Positions 41,285 to 55,036 of a DNA stretch of 64,000 nucleotides are shown here, piece by piece. Origin of the DNA: Gracilimonas sp. Lineage in GTDB: Bacteria; Bacteroidota; Rhodothermia; Balneolales; Balneolaceae. The notes beneath the pieces were generated by a model. The model did not search any database. It had not been told where the DNA came from and saw only the letters and a program-made list of their open reading frames with translations. The stretch lies in NCBI RefSeq assembly GCF_040218225.1, contig NZ_JAVJQO010000007.1:62001-126000 (forward strand), read 5' to 3'. How positions within the stretch are numbered: the stretch's first letter is position 1; the number at the start of each line of letters is the position of its first letter. Both the position numbers and the translations under genes were made by a program.

Positions 41285-44041
41285 ATGAAGAGGCTCCAAA
41301 AACTATTTCAGCTTAATGCTGTAACTATTACTGTCATATACATGGTAATAGGTACATTATGGATTCTCTTTTCTGACCAGCTGTTAAGGGCGACTATAAA
41401 AGATCTTGAAACTTTCTCCCGCATCGAAACTTTCAAAGGTCTTTTTTATATCGTGGTAACCGGCTCTCTCCTTTACTTTCTTGTTGACTTCAGCAATAAA
41501 CGCATTAAAGCCACCCGTGAAACCGTCGACAAAGCCCTGGACTCTGTAAAAATTGCTACCTGGAGCATTGACCTCAGAAACGACCGAAACATCACCTCTA
41601 AGTACCACTATAAACTTTTTGGTTTAAAAAAAAGCCCCAAAACCTGGAATGTTCAGGACTTTTACAATCGCATTCATCCTGAAGACAGAGATCTTGTTGA
41701 ACGAGCTTTTATTGAGGCCATTGAAACAAAAAAACCTTATGCAGCTGAGTACCGCATTATTTGGCCCGATGAAACCATCCGCTGGATGAAAAGCCTGGGC
41801 AATGTTCAGCTAAACGAAGAAGGTGAGACAATAGGCATTTCAGGAATTATTCAGGATATCACAGAACAGATGCATCTTGAAGTACAACATAACCGGAAAC
41901 AAGAGCTTTTCGAGCGTATTTTCGAGCAAATCCCCGTTATGGTTGATATTTATGATCCTCAAATTAACGAGATCAGGGTTAATAAAGCTTTTGAAGATAT
42001 TTTAGGATGGAGTAACGATGAAATACAGGAAATAGATTTAATGACTGCCTGCTATCCTGATCCTGAAATTAGAGAAAAAGCCGCCAAAGTAATGAACGAA
42101 GCTGATGGGGGGTGGCACACCTTCCACGTAAAGGATAAGAAAGGAAATACACACATTCAGGAGTGGTCAAATATAAAGCTCTCTGACAGCAGTATTATTG
42201 GTATTGGGCTGGATGTAACTGAATTGAAAGCTTCACAGGAAGAGATTATAGAATCCCGGCAATTACTTGAAAAAATGTTCGAGAGTTTAAAGGAATCCGT
42301 TTTGATCCTTGAACCGGGAACCCGCGTCATTACAGACTGTAACCAAAGTGCTACCAAATTGTTTGGCTATTCAAAAGAAGAATTAATTGGCAGCAGTACA
42401 AAAAAGCTACATGTAAGCGAAGAATGGTACTACAAGTTTGACGAAATGGGGACCGAGAACCTTAAAGAAAAAGGGATTTTCGAAACAGAATATGTACTTA
42501 AGAAAAAAGACGGTACAAAATTTCACACCCAACATACCGTAACTTTAATTGAAAGAGAAGATGGTGAGGTTGAAAAAATCGTAAGCGTTGTTCAGGATAT
42601 CACTGATCAGGTAAACCATGAAAAGGAACTAAAAGAGCATAATGAATTCATCGAAACCACTTTAGAAAACCTTCCCATTGGGGTGGCGGTTAATCTGGTT
42701 GATTCTGGTAAAGTGACATTAATGAATAAACAGTTTGCCGAAATTTACGGCTGGCCTAGAGATGTAATTAATGATGTGGAGACCTTTTTTGAAAAAGTAT
42801 ATCCCGATGAACAGTACCGAAAACATATGGTAGAAATGGTTATGGCCGATATGGAGTCAAAAAAGCCAGAGCGAATGAATTGGAAGGGCATCAGGATAAC
42901 AACTCAGACTGGAGAACAACGCATTATAAATGCCAAAAATATTCCCGTTTATGACCAAAATCTCATGATTTCTACAGTGGTGGATGTGACGGCTCAGGTT
43001 GAAGCAGAGAAAAAACTGGCTGAATCAGAACATAATTACCGACTTCTTTTTCAGAAAAGCCCACAACCGATGTTCATATATAACCCTGATGATTTATCCA
43101 TTGTTGAAGTAAATGAATCAGCAGTCCGGCATTATGGATATACAAGGCAAGAATTTTATTCCAAAACGTTACTGGACATCCGACCTGAAGAGGAAAAAGA
43201 AAAAGCCAGAAAAATTATCAAAAACGATCGTGAAACTAATCTCTCAGAACCTGAGGAATCACGACACCTTAAAAAATCCGGTGAAGTAATTAATGTCCGC
43301 GTCACCGGTTCAGCCATAAACTACTTTGGCAAAGATTACCGGCTGGTGTTGGTGAATGATATCACCAAACAAAAGAAAGCGGAGGAAATGGTTTTGGCTT
43401 CTTTGGTGGAAGGAGAAAATAAAGAACGGGCGCGAATTGCCCAGGAGTTGCACGATGGATTGGGGCAATACCTTGCAGCTGCCAACATGAACCTGGATGC
43501 TGTAAAAACCCAAATCTCCAACCTGAATGAACGCAAGCAAGAGCAGTTCAATAAAGGTTTGAATTTATTAAAACACGCAGTTACCGAAACAGCACAAATT
43601 TCACGAAACCTGATGCCACGCGTGGTTGATGATTATGGACTGGCTTTAGCTATTGAGGCCCTCGTTGATAATTACAGCACCAATAATGAAATGGATATCA
43701 GCTATTATCAAAATATTCAGAATGTAGAACTTCCCCGGGAAGTACAATTTAATCTCTATCGTATTGCTCAGGAAGGACTTTCGAATGCCGTAAAATATTC
43801 GGAAGCTACACAAATAAATGTACAGCTAATTAAAGATGAGCTTGATTTGATCCTGACGATTGATGATAATGGAGTCGGCTTTAACACTTCAGATTCGGAC
43901 TTTGTGCCAGGACTGGGTTTACAAACCATTAAAACAAGAACGGGGGCACTTGGTGGTGATTTTGAATTCGACTCTAAACCAGGAAAAGGGACTTTTATTA
44001 GTGCAATCGTTCCCATTCATAAAAATTCTAGCGGCACTTAA
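41285..44041 (+). CDS. Multi-PAS sensor histidine kinase, NarX/DesK-like (HisKA_3)
   Basis: 918 residues. Two N-terminal transmembrane helices (about 13-32 and 50-68) are separated by a short loop, so sensing is probably not by a large periplasmic domain. About five PAS/PAC modules run from ~80 to ~700, e.g. 'RIHPEDRDLVERAFIEA' (PAS_3 type) and repeated 'VVQDITDQ'/'VVDVTAQ' PAC ends. The HisKA_3 dimerisation helix has 'ARIAQELHDGLGQYLAAAN' with His723 as phospho-acceptor. The HATPase domain has 'YRIAQEGLSNAVKYSE' (N box), 'LTIDDNGVGFN' (G1) and 'GLGLQTIKTRTGALGG' (G2), all intact. The stop codon is immediately followed by the ATG of the LuxR-type response regulator, its cognate partner. Confidence 0.92.
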   Translation: MKRLQKLFQLNAVTITVIYMVIGTLWILFSDQLLRATIKDLETFSRIETFKGLFYIVVTGSLLYFLVDFSNKRIKATRETVDKALDSVKIATWSIDLRNDRNITSKYHYKLFGLKKSPKTWNVQDFYNRIHPEDRDLVERAFIEAIETKKPYAAEYRIIWPDETIRWMKSLGNVQLNEEGETIGISGIIQDITEQMHLEVQHNRKQELFERIFEQIPVMVDIYDPQINEIRVNKAFEDILGWSNDEIQEIDLMTACYPDPEIREKAAKVMNEADGGWHTFHVKDKKGNTHIQEWSNIKLSDSSIIGIGLDVTELKASQEEIIESRQLLEKMFESLKESVLILEPGTRVITDCNQSATKLFGYSKEELIGSSTKKLHVSEEWYYKFDEMGTENLKEKGIFETEYVLKKKDGTKFHTQHTVTLIEREDGEVEKIVSVVQDITDQVNHEKELKEHNEFIETTLENLPIGVAVNLVDSGKVTLMNKQFAEIYGWPRDVINDVETFFEKVYPDEQYRKHMVEMVMADMESKKPERMNWKGIRITTQTGEQRIINAKNIPVYDQNLMISTVVDVTAQVEAEKKLAESEHNYRLLFQKSPQPMFIYNPDDLSIVEVNESAVRHYGYTRQEFYSKTLLDIRPEEEKEKARKIIKNDRETNLSEPEESRHLKKSGEVINVRVTGSAINYFGKDYRLVLVNDITKQKKAEEMVLASLVEGENKERARIAQELHDGLGQYLAAANMNLDAVKTQISNLNERKQEQFNKGLNLLKHAVTETAQISRNLMPRVVDDYGLALAIEALVDNYSTNNEMDISYYQNIQNVELPREVQFNLYRIAQEGLSNAVKYSEATQINVQLIKDELDLILTIDDNGVGFNTSDSDFVPGLGLQTIKTRTGALGGDFEFDSKPGKGTFISAIVPIHKNSSGT

Positions 44042-44707
44042 ATGGCCAATATTAAGATTGCAATAGTTGATGACCATCAGATAGTAAGGGATGGGATTAA
44101 AATACTTATAGAAGACGAGCCTGGCTTTGAAGTTTTATTTGAAGCTGAGAATGGGAAACAAGCGACCGATCTTTCAAAAAAGCATAGCCCTGATCTTATT
44201 ATCATGGATATTACAATGCCAAAAATGAATGGCATTGAAGCAACTGAGATTATCAAAAATGAACAGCCTGATGTCAAAATCCTGGCTTTGACCATGCTGA
44301 GTGAAGATCAGCACATAAAAAAAATGATAAAGGCAGGTGCTTCAGGATATATTCTTAAAAGCTCTGGCCGGGAAGAACTTATAAAAGCTATCAACACCAT
44401 CATTGGTGGCAAGCATTATTTTAGTGATGATGCTACTCAGGCTATTCTTCAGGAGCTGGTTCAGCCCTCAGTGTCTAAAGCCAAAGAACCCGATGATGTA
44501 AACATCACTGACCGGGAGCTTGAGGTGTTAAAACTGATTGTTAATGAGTTTACCAACCAGGAAATTGCCGATCAGCTATATGTCAGCGTCCGAACCGTTG
44601 ATGCTCACCGCAGAAATCTTCTGCAAAAAACCGGGGCTAAAAACACAGCCGGACTTGTCAAGTTTGCTATCAAAAATAACCTTTTTGAAAATAACGACAA
44701 TGGGTAA
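44042..44707 (+). CDS. NarL/FixJ-type response regulator (REC + LuxR HTH)
   Basis: 221 residues. The receiver domain has the acidic pair D10-D11 ('IAIVDDHQIVRDGIKIL'), phospho-acceptor D56 ('IIMDITMPKMNG'), the conserved Thr in 'ILALTMLSED' and Lys in 'GYILKSS', so it is a complete receiver. The C-terminal LuxR-type helix-turn-helix spans about 150-215 ('LTDRELEVLK'-like 'ITDRELEVLKLIVNEFTNQE', then 'LYVSVRTVDAHRRNLLQKTG'). It follows the HisKA_3 kinase with no intergenic base, the standard NarX-NarL arrangement. Target genes are unknown; the downstream receiver-only and pseudo-kinase genes are candidates. Confidence 0.94.
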   Translation: MANIKIAIVDDHQIVRDGIKILIEDEPGFEVLFEAENGKQATDLSKKHSPDLIIMDITMPKMNGIEATEIIKNEQPDVKILALTMLSEDQHIKKMIKAGASGYILKSSGREELIKAINTIIGGKHYFSDDATQAILQELVQPSVSKAKEPDDVNITDRELEVLKLIVNEFTNQEIADQLYVSVRTVDAHRRNLLQKTGAKNTAGLVKFAIKNNLFENNDNG

Positions 44708-44877: not shown

Positions 44878-45276
44878 ATGCTTCGGGTATTATTCATAGG
44901 AAAGACTAATCAAACCAACGAAATCATATCTGAAATTCTCAGATCTGCTTTCGATGCTGATATAGAATTTGAAGATCCCACCAAAGCTTTTGGAGAAAAA
45001 GGCATAACTATAGCCCCGCCCACAAACCTTGCTATCATTGATCTTAACACTTCTCACGGTTTTGGAAACGCTCCGGATAATATAAAGATCATAAAAAAGA
45101 ACTCACCTAATATTCCTGTTTTAGTATTAGATCATCACGACGATAAGAAGTTTATACATCCTTTGGTTGAAGCAGGTGCTTCAGGGGTTATTTCTCATAC
45201 CCCAACCGAACTGATACTTACCGAAGCTGTTACAGAGCTTTTAGGTGGGAATACATTCTATGACTATCCCGATTAG
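44878..45276 (+). CDS. Stand-alone degenerate receiver-domain protein
   Basis: 132 residues with the receiver fold pattern ('LRVLFIGKTNQTNEIISEIL', 'LAIIDLNTSHG', 'IPVLVLDHHDD', 'EAGASGVISHTP'). Only the phospho-acceptor-position Asp (D55) is kept. The N-terminal acidic pair is replaced by GKT (8-10), the conserved Thr by Asp85 and the conserved Lys by His107. Mg2+ binding and phosphorylation are therefore unlikely in the usual way, and it has no output domain. It lies 170 bp after the LuxR-type regulator and 178 bp before the pseudo-kinase gene. It may be a phosphorylation-independent adaptor or a decoy. Confidence 0.75.
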   Translation: MLRVLFIGKTNQTNEIISEILRSAFDADIEFEDPTKAFGEKGITIAPPTNLAIIDLNTSHGFGNAPDNIKIIKKNSPNIPVLVLDHHDDKKFIHPLVEAGASGVISHTPTELILTEAVTELLGGNTFYDYPD

Positions 45277-45454: not shown

Positions 45455-48400
45455 ATGAGTGATAATATATATACTACTATAGAATTGAATGCCTTAAGTT
45501 CGGCAATTCTCAATTCACTGAATGCTCACATTGCCATTCTTGATTACGATGGCACCATCACTGCCTTCAACAAGCAATGGAAAATACAGCGTGAGGAGTT
45601 TGGGGAAAAATGCAGTCATCCCAACCTCAATGAAAATATATTATCCACTCTTCAGCAACCACTCGCAGATGGCAATGATTTTGCCCTCAGGCTTTTGCTT
45701 GGCATTAAGGATGTTCTTCATCAGGAAAGAGATAGTTTTGAAACAAAGTATCAGATTCAACAAAATGGAAGCAGAAAGACATTTAATGTTACTGTAAAAT
45801 CTCTAGGACCTGAAGATGGAGCCATTCTTATTTATGAAGATATCAGTGCTCAAATTCAAAGCCTGACCTACCTTAAAGAAACACAAGAGAAATTTGAGAA
45901 ACATTTCCATAACAGCCTGTATGGAATTTTAGTAGCGGATGAATCAAATATTGTCATAGAAGCAAATAATGTAGCCTGTAAAATGCTGGAGACTACTTCT
46001 GATGCCATTGTTTTCTCCAATATCACTAATTACTTAGATGTTGATATGGATGCTTCCGAAATCCAGAAAAGGATTAATCGTGAAGGCAATTTTATGGGTG
46101 AATATGAAATCACGACAGCAAACGGAAGCATCGTCCCTGTTGAATTGAGTGTCACCTTATTCCGAAGTGAAAATGGAAAACCAGTTACCAGCTGGGCGTT
46201 TAAAGACATCTCTCAGAAAAGGCTTACACAGCAAGCCTTAAAAGCTTCAGAACAGCAATATAAGCTGCAGTTTAATAATACCCTGGAAGGAACCATCATA
46301 GGCAGGCCGAACGGCCGTATTCTTACGGTTAACCCGGCTGCCTGTGATTTGCTGGGGTATAAGGCTGAAGAACTGGAAGGCCAATACCGGGACATTGTCT
46401 TTGATATGGGAAACCCCATAAATGTACAGGCAGTCGCTAACCGACGAGAAAATGGTAGCTTTACAGGCGAGGTTGAATTTACTCACAAAGACGGACATAA
46501 AATTCCTGTAGAAGTGAGCTCCGTTATATTTGAAGCTGAAGACGGAACTGAAAAAACCATTATTAATATTAAGGACATATCCTCCAGAAAAGCCGTGCAG
46601 CAACAACTGCTGGATGAAAAGGAATTTACCGAATCTGCTATTTCCAGCCTGCCAACCGCGTTCTTCGTATTTAGTTTGGATGGCACGATGGTCCGGTGGA
46701 ATAGCATGCTGGAGCAAGACCTGGGCTATACACATGACGAAATTGCCCATAGCAATGTGATTCAACTGGTACATCCTGACGATCAGCCTTTACTGAAAGA
46801 AATCATGAAAGGTGAATTGGTTGGAAGAAAAATAAGTGTTGAAGCCCGCTGTATAACCAAAGAAGGAAAAGCTGTTCATTATTTATTGAGAGGAACCAGT
46901 TTTGAGCAAAACGGTGAGCGCTTTATTGTCGGGGGTGGATTGAACCGTAATAACTTAATTGAAATTGAAAATGAACGGCAACTGGTCAAAGAAGAACTGC
47001 AGCGAACCAAGCATTTTAATGAACTTGCTGTAAATGGAGCTAATCTTGGTTTATGGGAAGTAGATCTTGATAGCGGCCATGCTTACTATAATGAGCGCTG
47101 GCATACTATGCTGGGCTATCGTAAAGAAGACATTGAATTCACAAGAGAGTTCTTTTATACCTTAATTCATCCTGAAGACGAGAGTATTCCTGAAAATGAG
47201 CTTGCCAGATACAAAGAAGCCAACGATAAATATGAATCTGAATTCCGTTTAAAAGCTGCGGACGGATCTTACAAATGGATCCTGGCTATTGCAAAATTTG
47301 TAGACTGGGATGAAAATGGTAAACCAACCAAGCTTGCCGGTTCTCACATGGATATCACTGACCGAAAGGTTGTAGAAGTACAAAATAAAAGACACCAACA
47401 ACTGCTGAATCAACTTTTCTTCAATTCTCCAATTGGGATTGTTTTAGTTGATGCTGAAGGACGTGTCCAGAATATCAATCAGAGTTTTAGCAAAATTTTC
47501 GGCTATTCTGAAAAGGAAATAGCAGGAAAAGACCTCGATCAGACTATTGTACCCTCCGCTATGGATGACCAAGGAGAAATTCTTTCTCAGCTAAGCTTTA
47601 CCGGTGATAGTTTTCAAACCGAAACCATTCGTATCACCAAAGACGGCAAGGAAGTTCCTGTACTGGTAGGCGGTGTGCCCGTTGAATTAGATGGAGAAGT
47701 AATTGCAATTTATGGAATGTATGTTGATATCTCTGAGCGAAAGAGTAAAGAAGAAGAGCTCAAAAAAGTTAACGAGCAGCTAGAACAAGCTCAAAAGGTA
47801 AGTAAGCTTGGATACTGGGCACATAAGATTGCTGAAAACACCACTAAATGGTCAAAGGAGATGTATAACATTTGGGAATTAGACCCAAAAACTTTTAACC
47901 CCAACTTTGAACGGTTTAAGGAAACCATCCATCCAGAAGACAAACACCTTGTTTCTGTATTAACTGATAATTCGTTTCAGGATCAGAAATACCATGATAT
48001 AGAGTACAGAATTGTAACCTCAAGTGGCAAAATAAAATGGATTTTTGAACGAATTACCGTCATTAAGAATGATCAGGGAGAACCTGTTATCTGGGAAGGA
48101 ATTTCGCAGGACATCACTGAACGTAAAGCCCTCGAGAACCGGATTGTAGATCTCCTGAAAACGGAGCAAAAGGCCCGCGCCCAGATGCAGGATATGTTTG
48201 AGGAATCCCCATCAGCTATTGCTATGCTGGAAGGAGACCAACATACTTACACCTTTGTAAATGATAAATATAAAGAGCTGGTTGGAAGAAATCATTTAGT
48301 AGGATTACCGGTAAAAGAAGCATTACCTGAAATGGCAGAACAAGGTTTCACGGATCTGCTGAATACGTGTTTTAGTGAAGACAGAACCCTCTACTTTAAT

Positions 48401-49225
48401 GAAAAAGAAATCTATTTTAACAGAGGTGAAAATCAACCGTCAGAAAGCTATTTCCTGAATTTTGTATATAAACCTATACATGACGAAAATGGAAAAGTTT
48501 ATGGCATTTTTGTTGAAGCCATCGATGTGACCGAGCAAGTTCAGGCTCGAAACATCATTGAGAAGTCACTTGCTGAAAAAGAAACGCTGCTCAATGAAGT
48601 TCACCACCGTGTAAAAAATAACCTGGCTATTATTTCAGGTTTATTGGAGTTAGAGATTTTGGACAACCATGATCAAAAGATTTCTAAACACCTGTATTCA
48701 ACACAGTCTCGTATCACAACCATAGCTAAAATTCATGAGTTACTTTATCAAAACGAAAGCTTGACACATGTAAGCTTCAAAAAATTTATAGAGAGTGTTA
48801 TGGGTGAAGGAGCAAAACTGACTGATAAAAACTCCTACAAACTTATATCCGGCTTTGAACTGGATGAAGTTGAGTTGAATGTTAATCAGGCAATTCCCGC
48901 AGGTATGCTGCTTAATGAAGTGCTCGACTACCTGGATCAGGTTAAAAGTTCTGATTTGAATGCTGATGCAAGTCCACTCACTCTTAAAATGGTCAACAAT
49001 AATGACGAGTGTGTTAAAATTGAATTAATCGACCAATCTAACCAACTGCTTCCAGCGTATAACACAGATGACAACTCAAACACTCGTTTACGAAAAGAAC
49101 TTATTGAGGTATTGTCGACCCAAATTCATGGGAATATTGAGTTAAATCAGGACAAAGAGAGCATTCTCTCAATTCATTTTGCCAAAAGAGAAGCAAAAGG
49201 ACCACATAGTGCTTTAAGAAATTAA
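45455..49225 (+). CDS. Eight-PAS protein with HisKA_2 helix and degenerate ATPase domain
   Basis: 1256 residues, no transmembrane helix. About eight PAS/PAC modules follow one another to ~1040, e.g. 'YEDISAQIQSLTYL', 'AFKDISQKR', 'INIKDISSRKA', 'HMDITDRK', 'YVDISERK', 'SQDITERKALENR', 'AIDVTEQVQAR'. Then 'LNEVHHRVKNNLAIISGLLE' is a clear HisKA_2/HWE-type dimerisation motif with H1050-H1051. The region that should be the HATPase keeps 'NQAIPAGMLLNEV' (N1154-E1155) but has lost the second Asn of the N box and every glycine of G1 ('IELIDQSNQLLP') and G2. ATP binding is thus improbable. It may work as a phosphotransfer or scaffold protein like ChpT, or by heterodimerising with the kinase gene 15 bp downstream. 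Confidence 0.82.
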   Translation: MSDNIYTTIELNALSSAILNSLNAHIAILDYDGTITAFNKQWKIQREEFGEKCSHPNLNENILSTLQQPLADGNDFALRLLLGIKDVLHQERDSFETKYQIQQNGSRKTFNVTVKSLGPEDGAILIYEDISAQIQSLTYLKETQEKFEKHFHNSLYGILVADESNIVIEANNVACKMLETTSDAIVFSNITNYLDVDMDASEIQKRINREGNFMGEYEITTANGSIVPVELSVTLFRSENGKPVTSWAFKDISQKRLTQQALKASEQQYKLQFNNTLEGTIIGRPNGRILTVNPAACDLLGYKAEELEGQYRDIVFDMGNPINVQAVANRRENGSFTGEVEFTHKDGHKIPVEVSSVIFEAEDGTEKTIINIKDISSRKAVQQQLLDEKEFTESAISSLPTAFFVFSLDGTMVRWNSMLEQDLGYTHDEIAHSNVIQLVHPDDQPLLKEIMKGELVGRKISVEARCITKEGKAVHYLLRGTSFEQNGERFIVGGGLNRNNLIEIENERQLVKEELQRTKHFNELAVNGANLGLWEVDLDSGHAYYNERWHTMLGYRKEDIEFTREFFYTLIHPEDESIPENELARYKEANDKYESEFRLKAADGSYKWILAIAKFVDWDENGKPTKLAGSHMDITDRKVVEVQNKRHQQLLNQLFFNSPIGIVLVDAEGRVQNINQSFSKIFGYSEKEIAGKDLDQTIVPSAMDDQGEILSQLSFTGDSFQTETIRITKDGKEVPVLVGGVPVELDGEVIAIYGMYVDISERKSKEEELKKVNEQLEQAQKVSKLGYWAHKIAENTTKWSKEMYNIWELDPKTFNPNFERFKETIHPEDKHLVSVLTDNSFQDQKYHDIEYRIVTSSGKIKWIFERITVIKNDQGEPVIWEGISQDITERKALENRIVDLLKTEQKARAQMQDMFEESPSAIAMLEGDQHTYTFVNDKYKELVGRNHLVGLPVKEALPEMAEQGFTDLLNTCFSEDRTLYFNEKEIYFNRGENQPSESYFLNFVYKPIHDENGKVYGIFVEAIDVTEQVQARNIIEKSLAEKETLLNEVHHRVKNNLAIISGLLELEILDNHDQKISKHLYSTQSRITTIAKIHELLYQNESLTHVSFKKFIESVMGEGAKLTDKNSYKLISGFELDEVELNVNQAIPAGMLLNEVLDYLDQVKSSDLNADASPLTLKMVNNNDECVKIELIDQSNQLLPAYNTDDNSNTRLRKELIEVLSTQIHGNIELNQDKESILSIHFAKREAKGPHSALRN

Positions 49226-49240
49226 AAAAGATTATTTACC

Positions 49241-50470
49241 ATGCAGCAATTAATCGAACAAAATAAAACAACGGGTTTCCCGCTTCCCGATAATGAGTCA
49301 GAGAGACAGATGGCCGTCGAGAAATATAATATACTCGACACCCTGCCTGAAGAAGAATTTGATTCCCTGGTAGAGCTTGCAGCTATTATCACCGAGAGTC
49401 CGATGTCTCAGATGAATCTTCTGGACCATCACAGACAATGGACAAAATCGGCTTATGGACTTGAGAGTGGAGAAGAAAGGTCTCGGTCAGAAGCCATTTG
49501 CACCTACACTATAATGGGTAACGAAAACCTGGAAATTCAGGATCTTACCCAGGACGATCGGTTCAAAAATGCTTCTTATGTAGAAGGTGATCCCTTTCTA
49601 AAGTATTACGGAGGCTATCCTCTTAGAACCGAAAAGGGATTAAATCTGGGAGCCCTATGTGTACTCGACACTAAGCCAAAAGAACTTAGCAAAACTCAAA
49701 AAAAAGCTCTTAAGACGATTGCTAATGAAATTGTCTCCCGGCTTGAAATTCGCCGGACTCAGCAAAAACTCGAAAAACTAAACCGTGAGAAAGACCAGTT
49801 TTTACGGGCAGTCAACCACGATATTAAGAGTCCACTCAATGGCATTATCAGCTCTACCCATTATTTACAAAACTTTTGGGAAGGAGATCGGGATGAATTG
49901 AATAGTATTCTTTCGATGATTGAAGTAAGTGGCAGAAAGCTGGTAAACTACACCAGCGAATTGGTGTCCAATTCACTGGAAAATGGAGAATCCAGCCTTA
50001 TACTTGATGAGGTTCAGGTAGATGAACTCATTATAGATCTTATTCATATTTATACTCCTCTTGCAAAGGCCAAGCAGATAGATATTATTACTGAATTTGA
50101 TACTCCCGGACTTTTTAAACTTGATGATGAAAAGTTCAAACTGATTATGAGTAATCTGATTTCCAACGCACTTAAGTTTAGTTCATCAGGTGATGTCATT
50201 ACTGTTAAAGCTGAAATACTTGAAACTGATAATCGAATGCTTTACTGCTCGGTATCTGATACCGGCCTGGGTATTCCACAAGAGTTTATTCCAACCTTGT
50301 TTACCAAAAACAAAAAACACCAACGTAAAGGCACTCAAGGCGAGATCAGCACGGGATTAGGGCTGCCTATTGTCAAACAATTTGTGGAATTACACAATGG
50401 TGGTGTAAAAGTTGAGACCAAGGATAATCAAGGCACTACGTTCTATATAGCCATTCCTGAACAGCACTAA
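49241..50470 (+). CDS. GAF-domain sensor histidine kinase
   Basis: 409 residues, cytosolic. A GAF domain spans about 20-165 ('LDTLPEEEFDSLVELAAIIT', 'SEAICTYTIMGNENLEIQDL', 'GLNLGALCVLDTKPKELS'), the class seen in many Bacteroidota kinases. A HisKA domain follows with His193 ('FLRAVNHDIKSPLNGIISS'), then a full HATPase: 'MSNLISNALKFSSSGDVI' (N box), 'VSDTGLGIPQEF' (G1) and 'ISTGLGLPIVKQFVELHNGG' (G2). No receiver is fused. It starts 15 bp after the pseudo-kinase stop, so the two are co-expressed. It could act as the ATP-dependent kinase for that complex. A hairpin with a T-run ends the unit. Confidence 0.92.
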   Translation: MQQLIEQNKTTGFPLPDNESERQMAVEKYNILDTLPEEEFDSLVELAAIITESPMSQMNLLDHHRQWTKSAYGLESGEERSRSEAICTYTIMGNENLEIQDLTQDDRFKNASYVEGDPFLKYYGGYPLRTEKGLNLGALCVLDTKPKELSKTQKKALKTIANEIVSRLEIRRTQQKLEKLNREKDQFLRAVNHDIKSPLNGIISSTHYLQNFWEGDRDELNSILSMIEVSGRKLVNYTSELVSNSLENGESSLILDEVQVDELIIDLIHIYTPLAKAKQIDIITEFDTPGLFKLDDEKFKLIMSNLISNALKFSSSGDVITVKAEILETDNRMLYCSVSDTGLGIPQEFIPTLFTKNKKHQRKGTQGEISTGLGLPIVKQFVELHNGGVKVETKDNQGTTFYIAIPEQH

Positions 50471-53197: not shown

Positions 53198-55036
53198 CTA
53201 CTTCTCGATATACTGCACCAATTTCTGTTCTAGGTCAGCTGGGTTAAACGGTTTGGTCACAAAATCATTCATGCCAGAAGCATACACTTTTTCCCTTACC
53301 TCTTTCAATGCAGCCGCTGTAAGAGCGATAATCGGGATATTACGCTTGTAGGGATCATCCAATTTTCTAATATGCTCTGAAGCTTCATACCCATCCATCG
53401 TTGGCATCTGAAGATCCATCAGTACAACATCAAAATTACTTTCTCTGATCGCTTCTACAGCTTCTTCCCCATTATCGACCACTTTCATCTCAACATTCCA
53501 GCGCTCCAGAAAACGTAACATCACCTTTTGATTCACCAGGTTATCTTCGGCTAGCAGTACACGAAGGCCGCTTAAACTCTTCGAACTATCTTCATCTTGT
53601 GTGATAGCCTTGGCCTCATCATCGGACGATCCTTTATCAAAAGTTAATTCAACGAAGAAAGTGCTGCCCTCACCTTCCTCACTCTCAACAGAAATAGAGC
53701 CCCCTTGCAGCTCTGCAAGCTGTTTACTGATCGTAAGTCCTAAACCGGTTCCGCCAAATAGTCGCTTTGTATTTTGGCTGGCCTGGGTAAAACTTTCGAA
53801 TATGGTATTTACACGTGCTTCCTCAATTCCAATACCAGTATCTGAAATCGCAAATTGTAAGCGGATCGATTGGTCAAGGTCTTCTACTGCATTGACAGAT
53901 AAACGGACTTCACCTTCTTCGGTAAATTTCAGGGCATTGCTGACAAGGTTATTTAAAATTTGTGTTAGCCTCGCAGGATCACCAATCAGGATATTCGGTA
54001 TACCCTCTCCAATTTCGGTATTAATGTCGATTCCCTTGTTCTTTGCAGTAATTTTAAAGCTTTCTATAATGACATTGACAAGCTTATTGAGCTCAAACTC
54101 AATACTTTCAAATTCAATTTTTCCAGCCTCAATTTTTGAAAAATCCAGTACATCATCAATAAGTGAAAGCAAGGTCTTTCCTGAAAAGTCCAGGATATTA
54201 ATTGGTTCAATCTGATCTTGACGCGGGCTGTCTTGTTTTAGCAGATGTGTCATCCCCAAAATGGCATTCATCGGTGTCCTGATTTCATGACTCATAGTAG
54301 CCAGAAACTCGGATTTAGCTTTTGTACTTTTTGCAAGCTCTTCCGTTGCCACTTCAAGCTGCTCGATATAGGTCTCAAGTTTTTCCTGTTTAAGGCTCAG
54401 CTCTTGATTCAATTCCTGCTCTTTTTGCAGAAGCTCCAGTGTTTGATGCTCTGCATCTTCCTTAAATTGGGAAAACGTGTTAAAGATTAACCAGGTAGTT
54501 ACGAAAGAACCCGTCAAAACACTCCAACGTACCAGGGAGAAGCTGCTTTCAGAAATACTAATCCGCTCAAAAATTATGTAATCCAGAATGAAATAAGAAA
54601 GTATGGATAGCAGAATACCCATATTTCGAAGATGAACCTGGGTATTGTCAAATAGCAGAATAGAAAGTCCCATTGCAGGAATAAAGAAAGCCTGAATCAT
54701 AGCATCACCACCAAAAACAGAGCTGAGAATGATAATACCGATGTCAGCGTAAGCAATAAGCAAGATTTTTGAAGCCTTCACAAAGCCCTGACGAGCTAAT
54801 AGTGGGATAAGCAGGAAGGCAATGGCTTCCGATAGAAAAAACCATGTAAGTGAAACAGATTCATTAATCTGAAAAGCGATCAGAAAAAGAATTGATACCC
54901 CGGCTAAAAAGAATGAAACCGAATTTAGTACGGTCATTCCTGCTTTTTTACCTACAACTTCATCCTTCGATCTCAGGTCCTTACCTAAAGCGATATCAGA
55001 AATACCGGTAAGAGAAAATTTTGAACTCATATCCAT
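53198..55036 (-). CDS. Membrane-bound hybrid sensor histidine kinase
   Basis: 612 residues. The N-terminus holds about five to six transmembrane helices (about 30-185) with no large periplasmic loop, followed by a coiled coil (about 200-240, 'LLQKEQELNQELSLKQEKLE'). HisKA contains His250 ('FLATMSHEIRTPMNAILGMT'). HATPase: 'LTQILNNLVSNALKFTEEGE' (N box), 'FAISDTGIGIEEA' (G1) and 'GTGLGLTISKQLAELQGGS' (G2). A C-terminal receiver carries the acidic pair in 'VLLAEDNLVNQKVMLRFLER' and phospho-acceptor D541 ('VVLMDLQMPTMDGYEAS'), with conserved Thr and Lys. No Hpt domain or dedicated response regulator is adjacent, so the downstream target is unknown. Confidence 0.93.
   Translation of the reverse strand: MDMSSKFSLTGISDIALGKDLRSKDEVVGKKAGMTVLNSVSFFLAGVSILFLIAFQINESVSLTWFFLSEAIAFLLIPLLARQGFVKASKILLIAYADIGIIILSSVFGGDAMIQAFFIPAMGLSILLFDNTQVHLRNMGILLSILSYFILDYIIFERISISESSFSLVRWSVLTGSFVTTWLIFNTFSQFKEDAEHQTLELLQKEQELNQELSLKQEKLETYIEQLEVATEELAKSTKAKSEFLATMSHEIRTPMNAILGMTHLLKQDSPRQDQIEPINILDFSGKTLLSLIDDVLDFSKIEAGKIEFESIEFELNKLVNVIIESFKITAKNKGIDINTEIGEGIPNILIGDPARLTQILNNLVSNALKFTEEGEVRLSVNAVEDLDQSIRLQFAISDTGIGIEEARVNTIFESFTQASQNTKRLFGGTGLGLTISKQLAELQGGSISVESEEGEGSTFFVELTFDKGSSDDEAKAITQDEDSSKSLSGLRVLLAEDNLVNQKVMLRFLERWNVEMKVVDNGEEAVEAIRESNFDVVLMDLQMPTMDGYEASEHIRKLDDPYKRNIPIIALTAAALKEVREKVYASGMNDFVTKPFNPADLEQKLVQYIEK

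What the first reader, a model, noticed from the sequence alone, without database searches (positions are those of the whole stretch)
45455..49225. Eight-PAS protein whose kinase domain has lost its ATP-binding glycines
The HisKA_2-type helix is textbook (HHRVKNNL, H1050-H1051). The following domain keeps the barrel-entry motif 'NQAIPAGMLLNEV' but lacks the second N-box Asn and all G1/G2 glycines ('IELIDQSNQLLP' where DxGxG is expected). This looks like a dimerisation/phosphotransfer protein derived from a kinase, comparable in principle to ChpT, with an enormous PAS array as input. Its nearest partner is a fully intact GAF kinase starting 15 bp downstream, and a degenerate receiver is upstream.
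Basis: partly seen in the sequence, partly recalled or inferred. Interest (0 to 1): 0.6.

Follow-up and report, generated by a model that had tools for sequence, protein, structure and literature searches.

The report
Kinase-dead PAS relay protein, family-wide
A large bacterial sensor protein has lost the ATP-using part of its kinase but kept, without exception in 40 related genomes, the histidine that carries phosphate, so it is most likely a relay or brake inside a conserved signalling gene cluster and not a kinase that starts the signal.

Summary
ORF 45455-49225 (1256 aa, Gracilimonas-like Balneolaceae) has a textbook HisKA_2 phosphoacceptor helix and a C-terminal domain that still folds like a kinase catalytic domain but lacks the N-box Asn and the G1 and G2 glycines. 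It is neither an assembly error nor a decaying gene: in 40 syntenic copies across the family, H1051 and N1055 are kept 40/40, while the N-box Asn, DxGxG and G2 Gly are kept 0/40; 38 paralogous HisKA_2 kinases keep Asn and G2 Gly 38/38. A sister-family genome has an intact kinase at the same position with the same N-terminal domain. The gene follows a PAS-HisKA_3 kinase (38/40) and LuxR regulator (39/40), usually a pseudo-receiver (36/40), and is often followed by a canonical single-domain receiver (17/40) and a GAF kinase (21/40). The closest biochemical precedents are PhyT (Sphingomonas) and PhyK/LovK (Caulobacter), HisKA_2 proteins acting as phosphotransferases. Best explanation: a soluble, PAS-gated histidine phosphotransferase acting on the LuxR regulator (inferred, not shown); a PAS-gated phosphatase or sequestering brake is the main rival. 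New variant of a known kind, outside Alphaproteobacteria.

The parts
45455..49225 (+). PAS-array HisKA_2 pseudo-histidine kinase, 1256 aa, predicted soluble
45455..45859 (+). N-terminal atypical PAS-like domain specific to this locus (residues 1-135)
   Evidence: PAS_4 E 0.084; a profile of the locus N-termini recognises the positional orthologue in G051 at E 1.2e-28, other HisKA_2 proteins of the own genome at most 21 bits
45860..48580 (+). seven PAS domains (residues 136-1042)
   Evidence: each segment passes a Pfam PAS cut-off
48596..48805 (+). HisKA_2 DHp domain with HHRVKNN; H1051 phosphoacceptor
   Evidence: invariant in 40/40 locus members
48872..49189 (+). degenerate catalytic (Bergerat-fold) domain without N-box Asn, G1 or G2 glycines
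49190..49222 (+). conserved C-terminal tail (KGPHSAL within it)
44878..45276 (+). single-domain pseudo-receiver, 132 aa; keeps D55 but has no acid pair, Thr or Lys
44042..44707 (+). LuxR/NarL-type response regulator, intact receiver
41285..44041 (+). membrane PAS-HisKA_3 histidine kinase, intact
49241..50470 (+). GAF-HisKA histidine kinase, intact H, N, G1, G2 boxes

Best explanation
The protein is an ATP-dead histidine phosphotransferase of the PhyT/PhyK type: a soluble HisKA_2 kinase derivative whose PAS array gates access to H1051. It accepts a phosphoryl group from a phosphorylated receiver (in many relatives probably the single-domain receiver encoded next to it, charged by the adjacent GAF kinase or other kinases) and passes it to, or withdraws it from, the LuxR regulator of the same locus. 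The dead catalytic domain remains as a structural and docking element. Shown here: loss of the ATP-site residues in all 40 loci, invariance of the DHp motif, a predicted fold that is retained, purifying selection, family-wide synteny. Inferred: phosphotransfer, its direction, the LuxR regulator as partner, PAS gating.
For: 40/40 locus members keep H1051, R1052, N1055, N1056 and E1155, 0/40 keep N1159, DxGxG or the G2 Gly; intact paralogues keep N1159, G1195, G1213 38/38. Both DHp and CA are under purifying selection (G001-G007 dN/dS about 0.08 and 0.15). The AlphaFold model (pLDDT 79.9) keeps DHp plus a Bergerat-like CA and matches EL346 (Z 13.2), ChpT 4fmt (E 1.1e-6) and DivL 4q20. Synteny with the HisKA_3/LuxR pair across the family, joint absence in G008, and a canonical single-domain receiver directly downstream in 17/40 loci. 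Biochemical precedent: PhyT moves phosphate from SdrG to PhyR with a degenerate ATPase domain (PMC5898713); PhyK and LovK G1/G2-box mutants still relay phosphate from the single-domain receiver MrrA, which a HisKA kinase charges (PMC5964349).
Against: In the window's genus the local single-domain receiver is absent, so no donor receiver is identified there; the best-matching single-domain receiver of G000 is orthologous to a different gene in the relatives. HisKA_2 DHp acting on a NarL-type receiver is unproven. Conservation of His is also compatible with a phosphatase.
Confidence: 0.55

Rival explanations
1. PAS-gated phosphatase or sequestering brake: the HisKA_3 kinase phosphorylates the LuxR regulator, and the pseudo-kinase DHp removes the phosphate or holds the unphosphorylated regulator.
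For: In 14 loci with readable flanks neither single-domain receiver nor GAF kinase is present, leaving the HisKA_3 kinase and LuxR as the obvious partners. PhyT also sequesters PhyR, and LovK acts as LovR phosphatase (PMC5898713, PMC5964349). HRxxN keeps an Asn at H+4.
Against: H1051 is invariant in 40/40, more than a phosphatase strictly needs (the His is not essential for HisKA or HisKA_3 phosphatase activity according to PMC12632262).
Confidence: 0.28
2. DivL-like allosteric regulator or scaffold: the dead kinase module reads the state of a receiver (perhaps the pseudo-receiver) and controls the GAF or HisKA_3 kinase without carrying phosphate.
For: A pseudo-receiver precedes it in 36/40 loci; precedents DivL (PMC4211667, abstract) and Osp inhibiting CckA (PMC9430884).
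Against: DivL has lost its His (general knowledge); here it is invariant. The pseudo-receiver is absent in four loci that keep the pseudo-kinase.
Confidence: 0.1
3. It is still a kinase, with a non-canonical nucleotide site.
For: E1155 and the predicted CA fold are retained.
Against: The Mg-binding Asn and the G1 and G2 motifs are replaced, by different residues in different relatives.
Confidence: 0.04
4. A decaying gene without function.
For: The gene is missing or truncated in three genomes of another genus (G099, G102, G097).
Against: Open reading frame of 1256 aa, purifying selection, and the same loss with an invariant DHp in 40 genomes of many genera.
Confidence: 0.02

Closest known systems
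PhyT (formerly PhyP), Sphingomonas melonis Fr1, HisKA_2-family phosphotransferase
   Same: HRxxN DHp, degenerate ATPase domain, gene beside its response regulator, working with a single-domain receiver
   Different: PhyT is membrane-anchored with a periplasmic domain and works on PhyR/NepR; the window protein is soluble with a PAS array and sits beside a LuxR regulator and a pseudo-receiver, in Balneolaceae
PhyK and LovK, Caulobacter crescentus
   Same: HisKA_2 proteins that relay phosphate from a single-domain receiver without needing their ATP site
   Different: their G boxes are still present; here they are gone in every member of the family locus
ChpT (PF10090) and Spo0B
   Same: dimeric DHp with a dead CA-like domain; ChpT is among the structural matches
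   Different: no family match by profile at the thresholds used, no PAS input, different DHp family
DivL, Caulobacter
   Same: PAS-bearing pseudo-histidine kinase
   Different: DivL has Tyr instead of His (general knowledge); here His is invariant
EL346, Erythrobacter litoralis (4r39, 4r3a)
   Same: soluble HisKA_2 module, best structural match
   Different: EL346 is an active kinase

Membership tests
HisKA_2 histidine kinase | HisKA_2 DHp with HRxxN | tested here: met
   PF07568 E 3e-21; HHRVKNN at 1050
HisKA_2 histidine kinase | HATPase with N, G1 and G2 boxes | tested here: not met
   no HATPase_c match for residues 1131-1256; Y1159, S1195, Q1197, R1213
PhyT/PhyK-type phosphotransferase | HisKA_2 DHp kept with a dispensable or degenerate ATP site | tested here: met
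   precedent
PhyT/PhyK-type phosphotransferase | encoded beside its target response regulator | tested here: inconclusive
   beside a LuxR regulator in 39/40 loci, but partnership is untested
PhyT/PhyK-type phosphotransferase | donor single-domain receiver | tested here: inconclusive
   beside it in 17/40 loci, not in the window's genus
PhyT/PhyK-type phosphotransferase | phosphoryl transfer receiver-His-receiver | not testable with these tools
   needs biochemistry
PhyT orthologue | membrane anchor and periplasmic sensor, PhyR/NepR partner | tested here: not met
   no hydrophobic segment above 1.6; neighbours are a LuxR regulator and kinases
ChpT (HPTransfase, PF10090) | profile match | tested here: not met
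   not listed at E<=10 (HMMER filters drop most matches above about 0.1)
DivL-type pseudokinase | phosphoacceptor His replaced | tested here: not met
   H1051 in 40/40
Pseudo-receiver (44878-45276) | receiver fold without the phosphorylation residues | tested here: met
   fold matches VraR receiver; in 36 members no acid pair and no Lys, Thr position occupied by other residues (one Ser), Asp kept in 27/36

The most novel reading that the evidence does not exclude
Balneolaceae carry a family-wide signalling locus in which both halves of a two-component pair are dead (a pseudo-receiver and a pseudo-histidine kinase) yet maintained together, forming a PAS-gated phosphorelay node that merges the output of several kinases onto one LuxR regulator: an independent counterpart of the alphaproteobacterial PhyT/PhyK relay.
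Probability: 0.4. Interest if true: 0.65.

Novelty: new variant of a known kind. Interest (0 to 1): 0.5.

Why it matters
Kinase-derived phosphotransferases are known from a few systems (ChpT, Spo0B, PhyT, PhyK/LovK). A family-wide case in another phylum, with an intact positional orthologue in a sister family and a co-conserved pseudo-receiver, gives a natural series for asking how a sensor kinase turns into a relay or brake, and why the dead catalytic domain is kept.

Tried and rejected
Decay or frameshift: rejected (intact ORF, dN/dS, 40 genomes). Whether the degenerate group is one clade: the full C-terminal tree with 19 members says yes (100/98) but shares the lost columns; DHp alone cannot resolve it (p-AU 0.35), and a quick tree with 33 members again gives one branch (SH-aLRT 98). 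In that tree the intact G051 protein groups with intact kinases, so its orthology rests on position and its N-terminal domain. A relocated single-domain receiver in Gracilimonas was sought: the best candidate (G000 C6:540633) is orthologous to another gene (77% identity to G079 C1:99775), not to the locus receiver. A search of the open library for Balneolaceae two-component work listed no paper naming that family among its best rows. PDB phmmer with the C-terminus gave only weak hits.

Full report
What was checked. The ORF at 45455-49225 is 1256 codons with no stop. Pfam finds HisKA_2 at residues 1048-1117 (E 3e-21) and PAS domains, but no HATPase_c. Cut into segments, seven stretches pass a PAS cut-off; residues 1-135 match PAS_4 only at E 0.084, and residues 1131-1256 match no ATPase family. 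No hydrophobic segment reaches 1.6 on a 19-residue Kyte-Doolittle scan, so the protein is predicted soluble.

The own genome (3.54 Mb) gives 18 matches to the C-terminal module, the window protein included. Aligned, the other 17 largely retain their catalytic boxes, and the window protein is the only one that lost all three. One paralogue (G000 C4:14850) shows the reverse defect: HRxxN lost, DxGxG kept.

Family-wide conservation. Orthologues were found in eight other genomes of the genus and in further genera. Following the LuxR gene, which occurs in 50 of 92 family genomes, and reading downstream gave, with those already held, 40 C-termini at this locus. H1051 and N1055 are present in 40/40. 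N1159 is replaced in 40/40, by Y, C, T, Q, L, V, I, R or M. DxGxG is absent in 40/40. G1213 is replaced in 40/40. In 38 paralogues the numbers are N 38/38, G1195 38/38, G1213 38/38 (these paralogues were chosen as largely intact, so they serve as a reference and not as a random sample). Losing the ATP site in every member while keeping the phosphoacceptor motif in every member is a pattern of function, not decay. Purifying selection is visible in both domains (G001 against G007: dN/dS about 0.08 for DHp and 0.15 for CA; G002 against G009 about 0.07 and 0.13); most other pairs are saturated at synonymous sites.

Structure. An AlphaFold model from five sequences (pLDDT 79.9, pTM 0.77) shows the two DHp helices and an alpha/beta sandwich. 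Foldseek's best match is the HisKA_2 kinase EL346 (4r39, E 1.3e-8), with ChpT (4fmt, 1.1e-6; 4fpp) and DivL (4q20) also listed; VIA-align gives 4r3a Z 13.2 and CA domains of many kinases near Z 10-11. A shared fold does not show function.

The locus. Order: HisKA_3 PAS kinase, LuxR regulator, pseudo-receiver, pseudo-kinase, optional single-domain receiver, optional GAF kinase. Of 40 loci, LuxR is present in 39 (in G004 the parts lie on two contigs), HisKA_3 in 38, the pseudo-receiver in 36 (decayed in G068), the single-domain receiver in 17 and the GAF kinase in 21. The downstream single-domain receivers carry the canonical residues. The pseudo-receivers have no acid pair, no Lys, and no Thr (one Ser); the Asp is kept in 27 of 36. 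The pseudo-receiver model (pLDDT 87.5) has the receiver fold, nearest VraR. Genome G008 of the same genus lacks LuxR, pseudo-receiver and pseudo-kinase together at the thresholds used.

Origin. In G051, of another family in the order, the protein at the same position (behind LuxR and a degenerate receiver) has intact boxes (NEVVSN, DNGIG, KLGTT), and its N-terminus matches the profile of the locus N-termini at E 1.2e-28, against at most 21 bits for other HisKA_2 proteins. This suggests that the ancestor was a working kinase and that the receiver degenerated first. It is one genome, and the sequence tree does not place it with the pseudo-kinases, so a domain swap is not excluded.

Mechanism. 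PhyT in Sphingomonas (degenerate ATPase domain) transfers phosphate from SdrG to PhyR and also sequesters PhyR (PMC5898713). In Caulobacter, PhyK and LovK act as phosphotransferases fed by MrrA even with G1 or G2 mutated, and MrrA is charged by a HisKA kinase among others (PMC5964349). The loci with HisKA kinase, single-domain receiver, dead HisKA_2 protein and response regulator resemble this relay. In the window's genus and several others the local receiver is absent, so a direct action on LuxR (reverse transfer, phosphatase or sequestration) is the main rival. The invariant His favours phosphotransfer.

Limits. No biochemistry; expression and signals unknown; the LuxR regulon is unknown.

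Noticed in passing
window 53198-55036 (-): MASE7-like hybrid kinase is 91-94% identical in three congeners, far more conserved than the HisKA_3 kinase and pseudo-kinase nearby (59-77%).
   Followed up: no
L018 (G000 C4:14850-15488): HisKA_2-like protein with the HRxxN motif lost (RQQLYDN) but N-box and DxGxG kept: the reverse defect of the window protein.
   Followed up: no
window 49190-49222 and paralogues: A short C-terminal tail (KGPHSAL, KGSSSS and similar) recurs in many Balneolaceae HisKA_2 proteins, intact ones included, and in the genus is better conserved than the degenerate domain before it.
   Followed up: partly
window 45455-45859: Locus-specific N-terminal PAS-like domain with a conserved 'YALKLLLGLKxVL' stretch, below Pfam thresholds.
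   Followed up: partly
L164 (G099), L171 (G102), L173 (G097): Pseudo-kinase gene missing or truncated while neighbours remain; could be real loss or assembly error.
   Followed up: no
window 45455-49225 against L051: PAS number varies: the window copy is about 130 aa longer than its nearest orthologue, roughly one PAS domain, and most members outside the genus are about 600-760 aa.
   Followed up: partly
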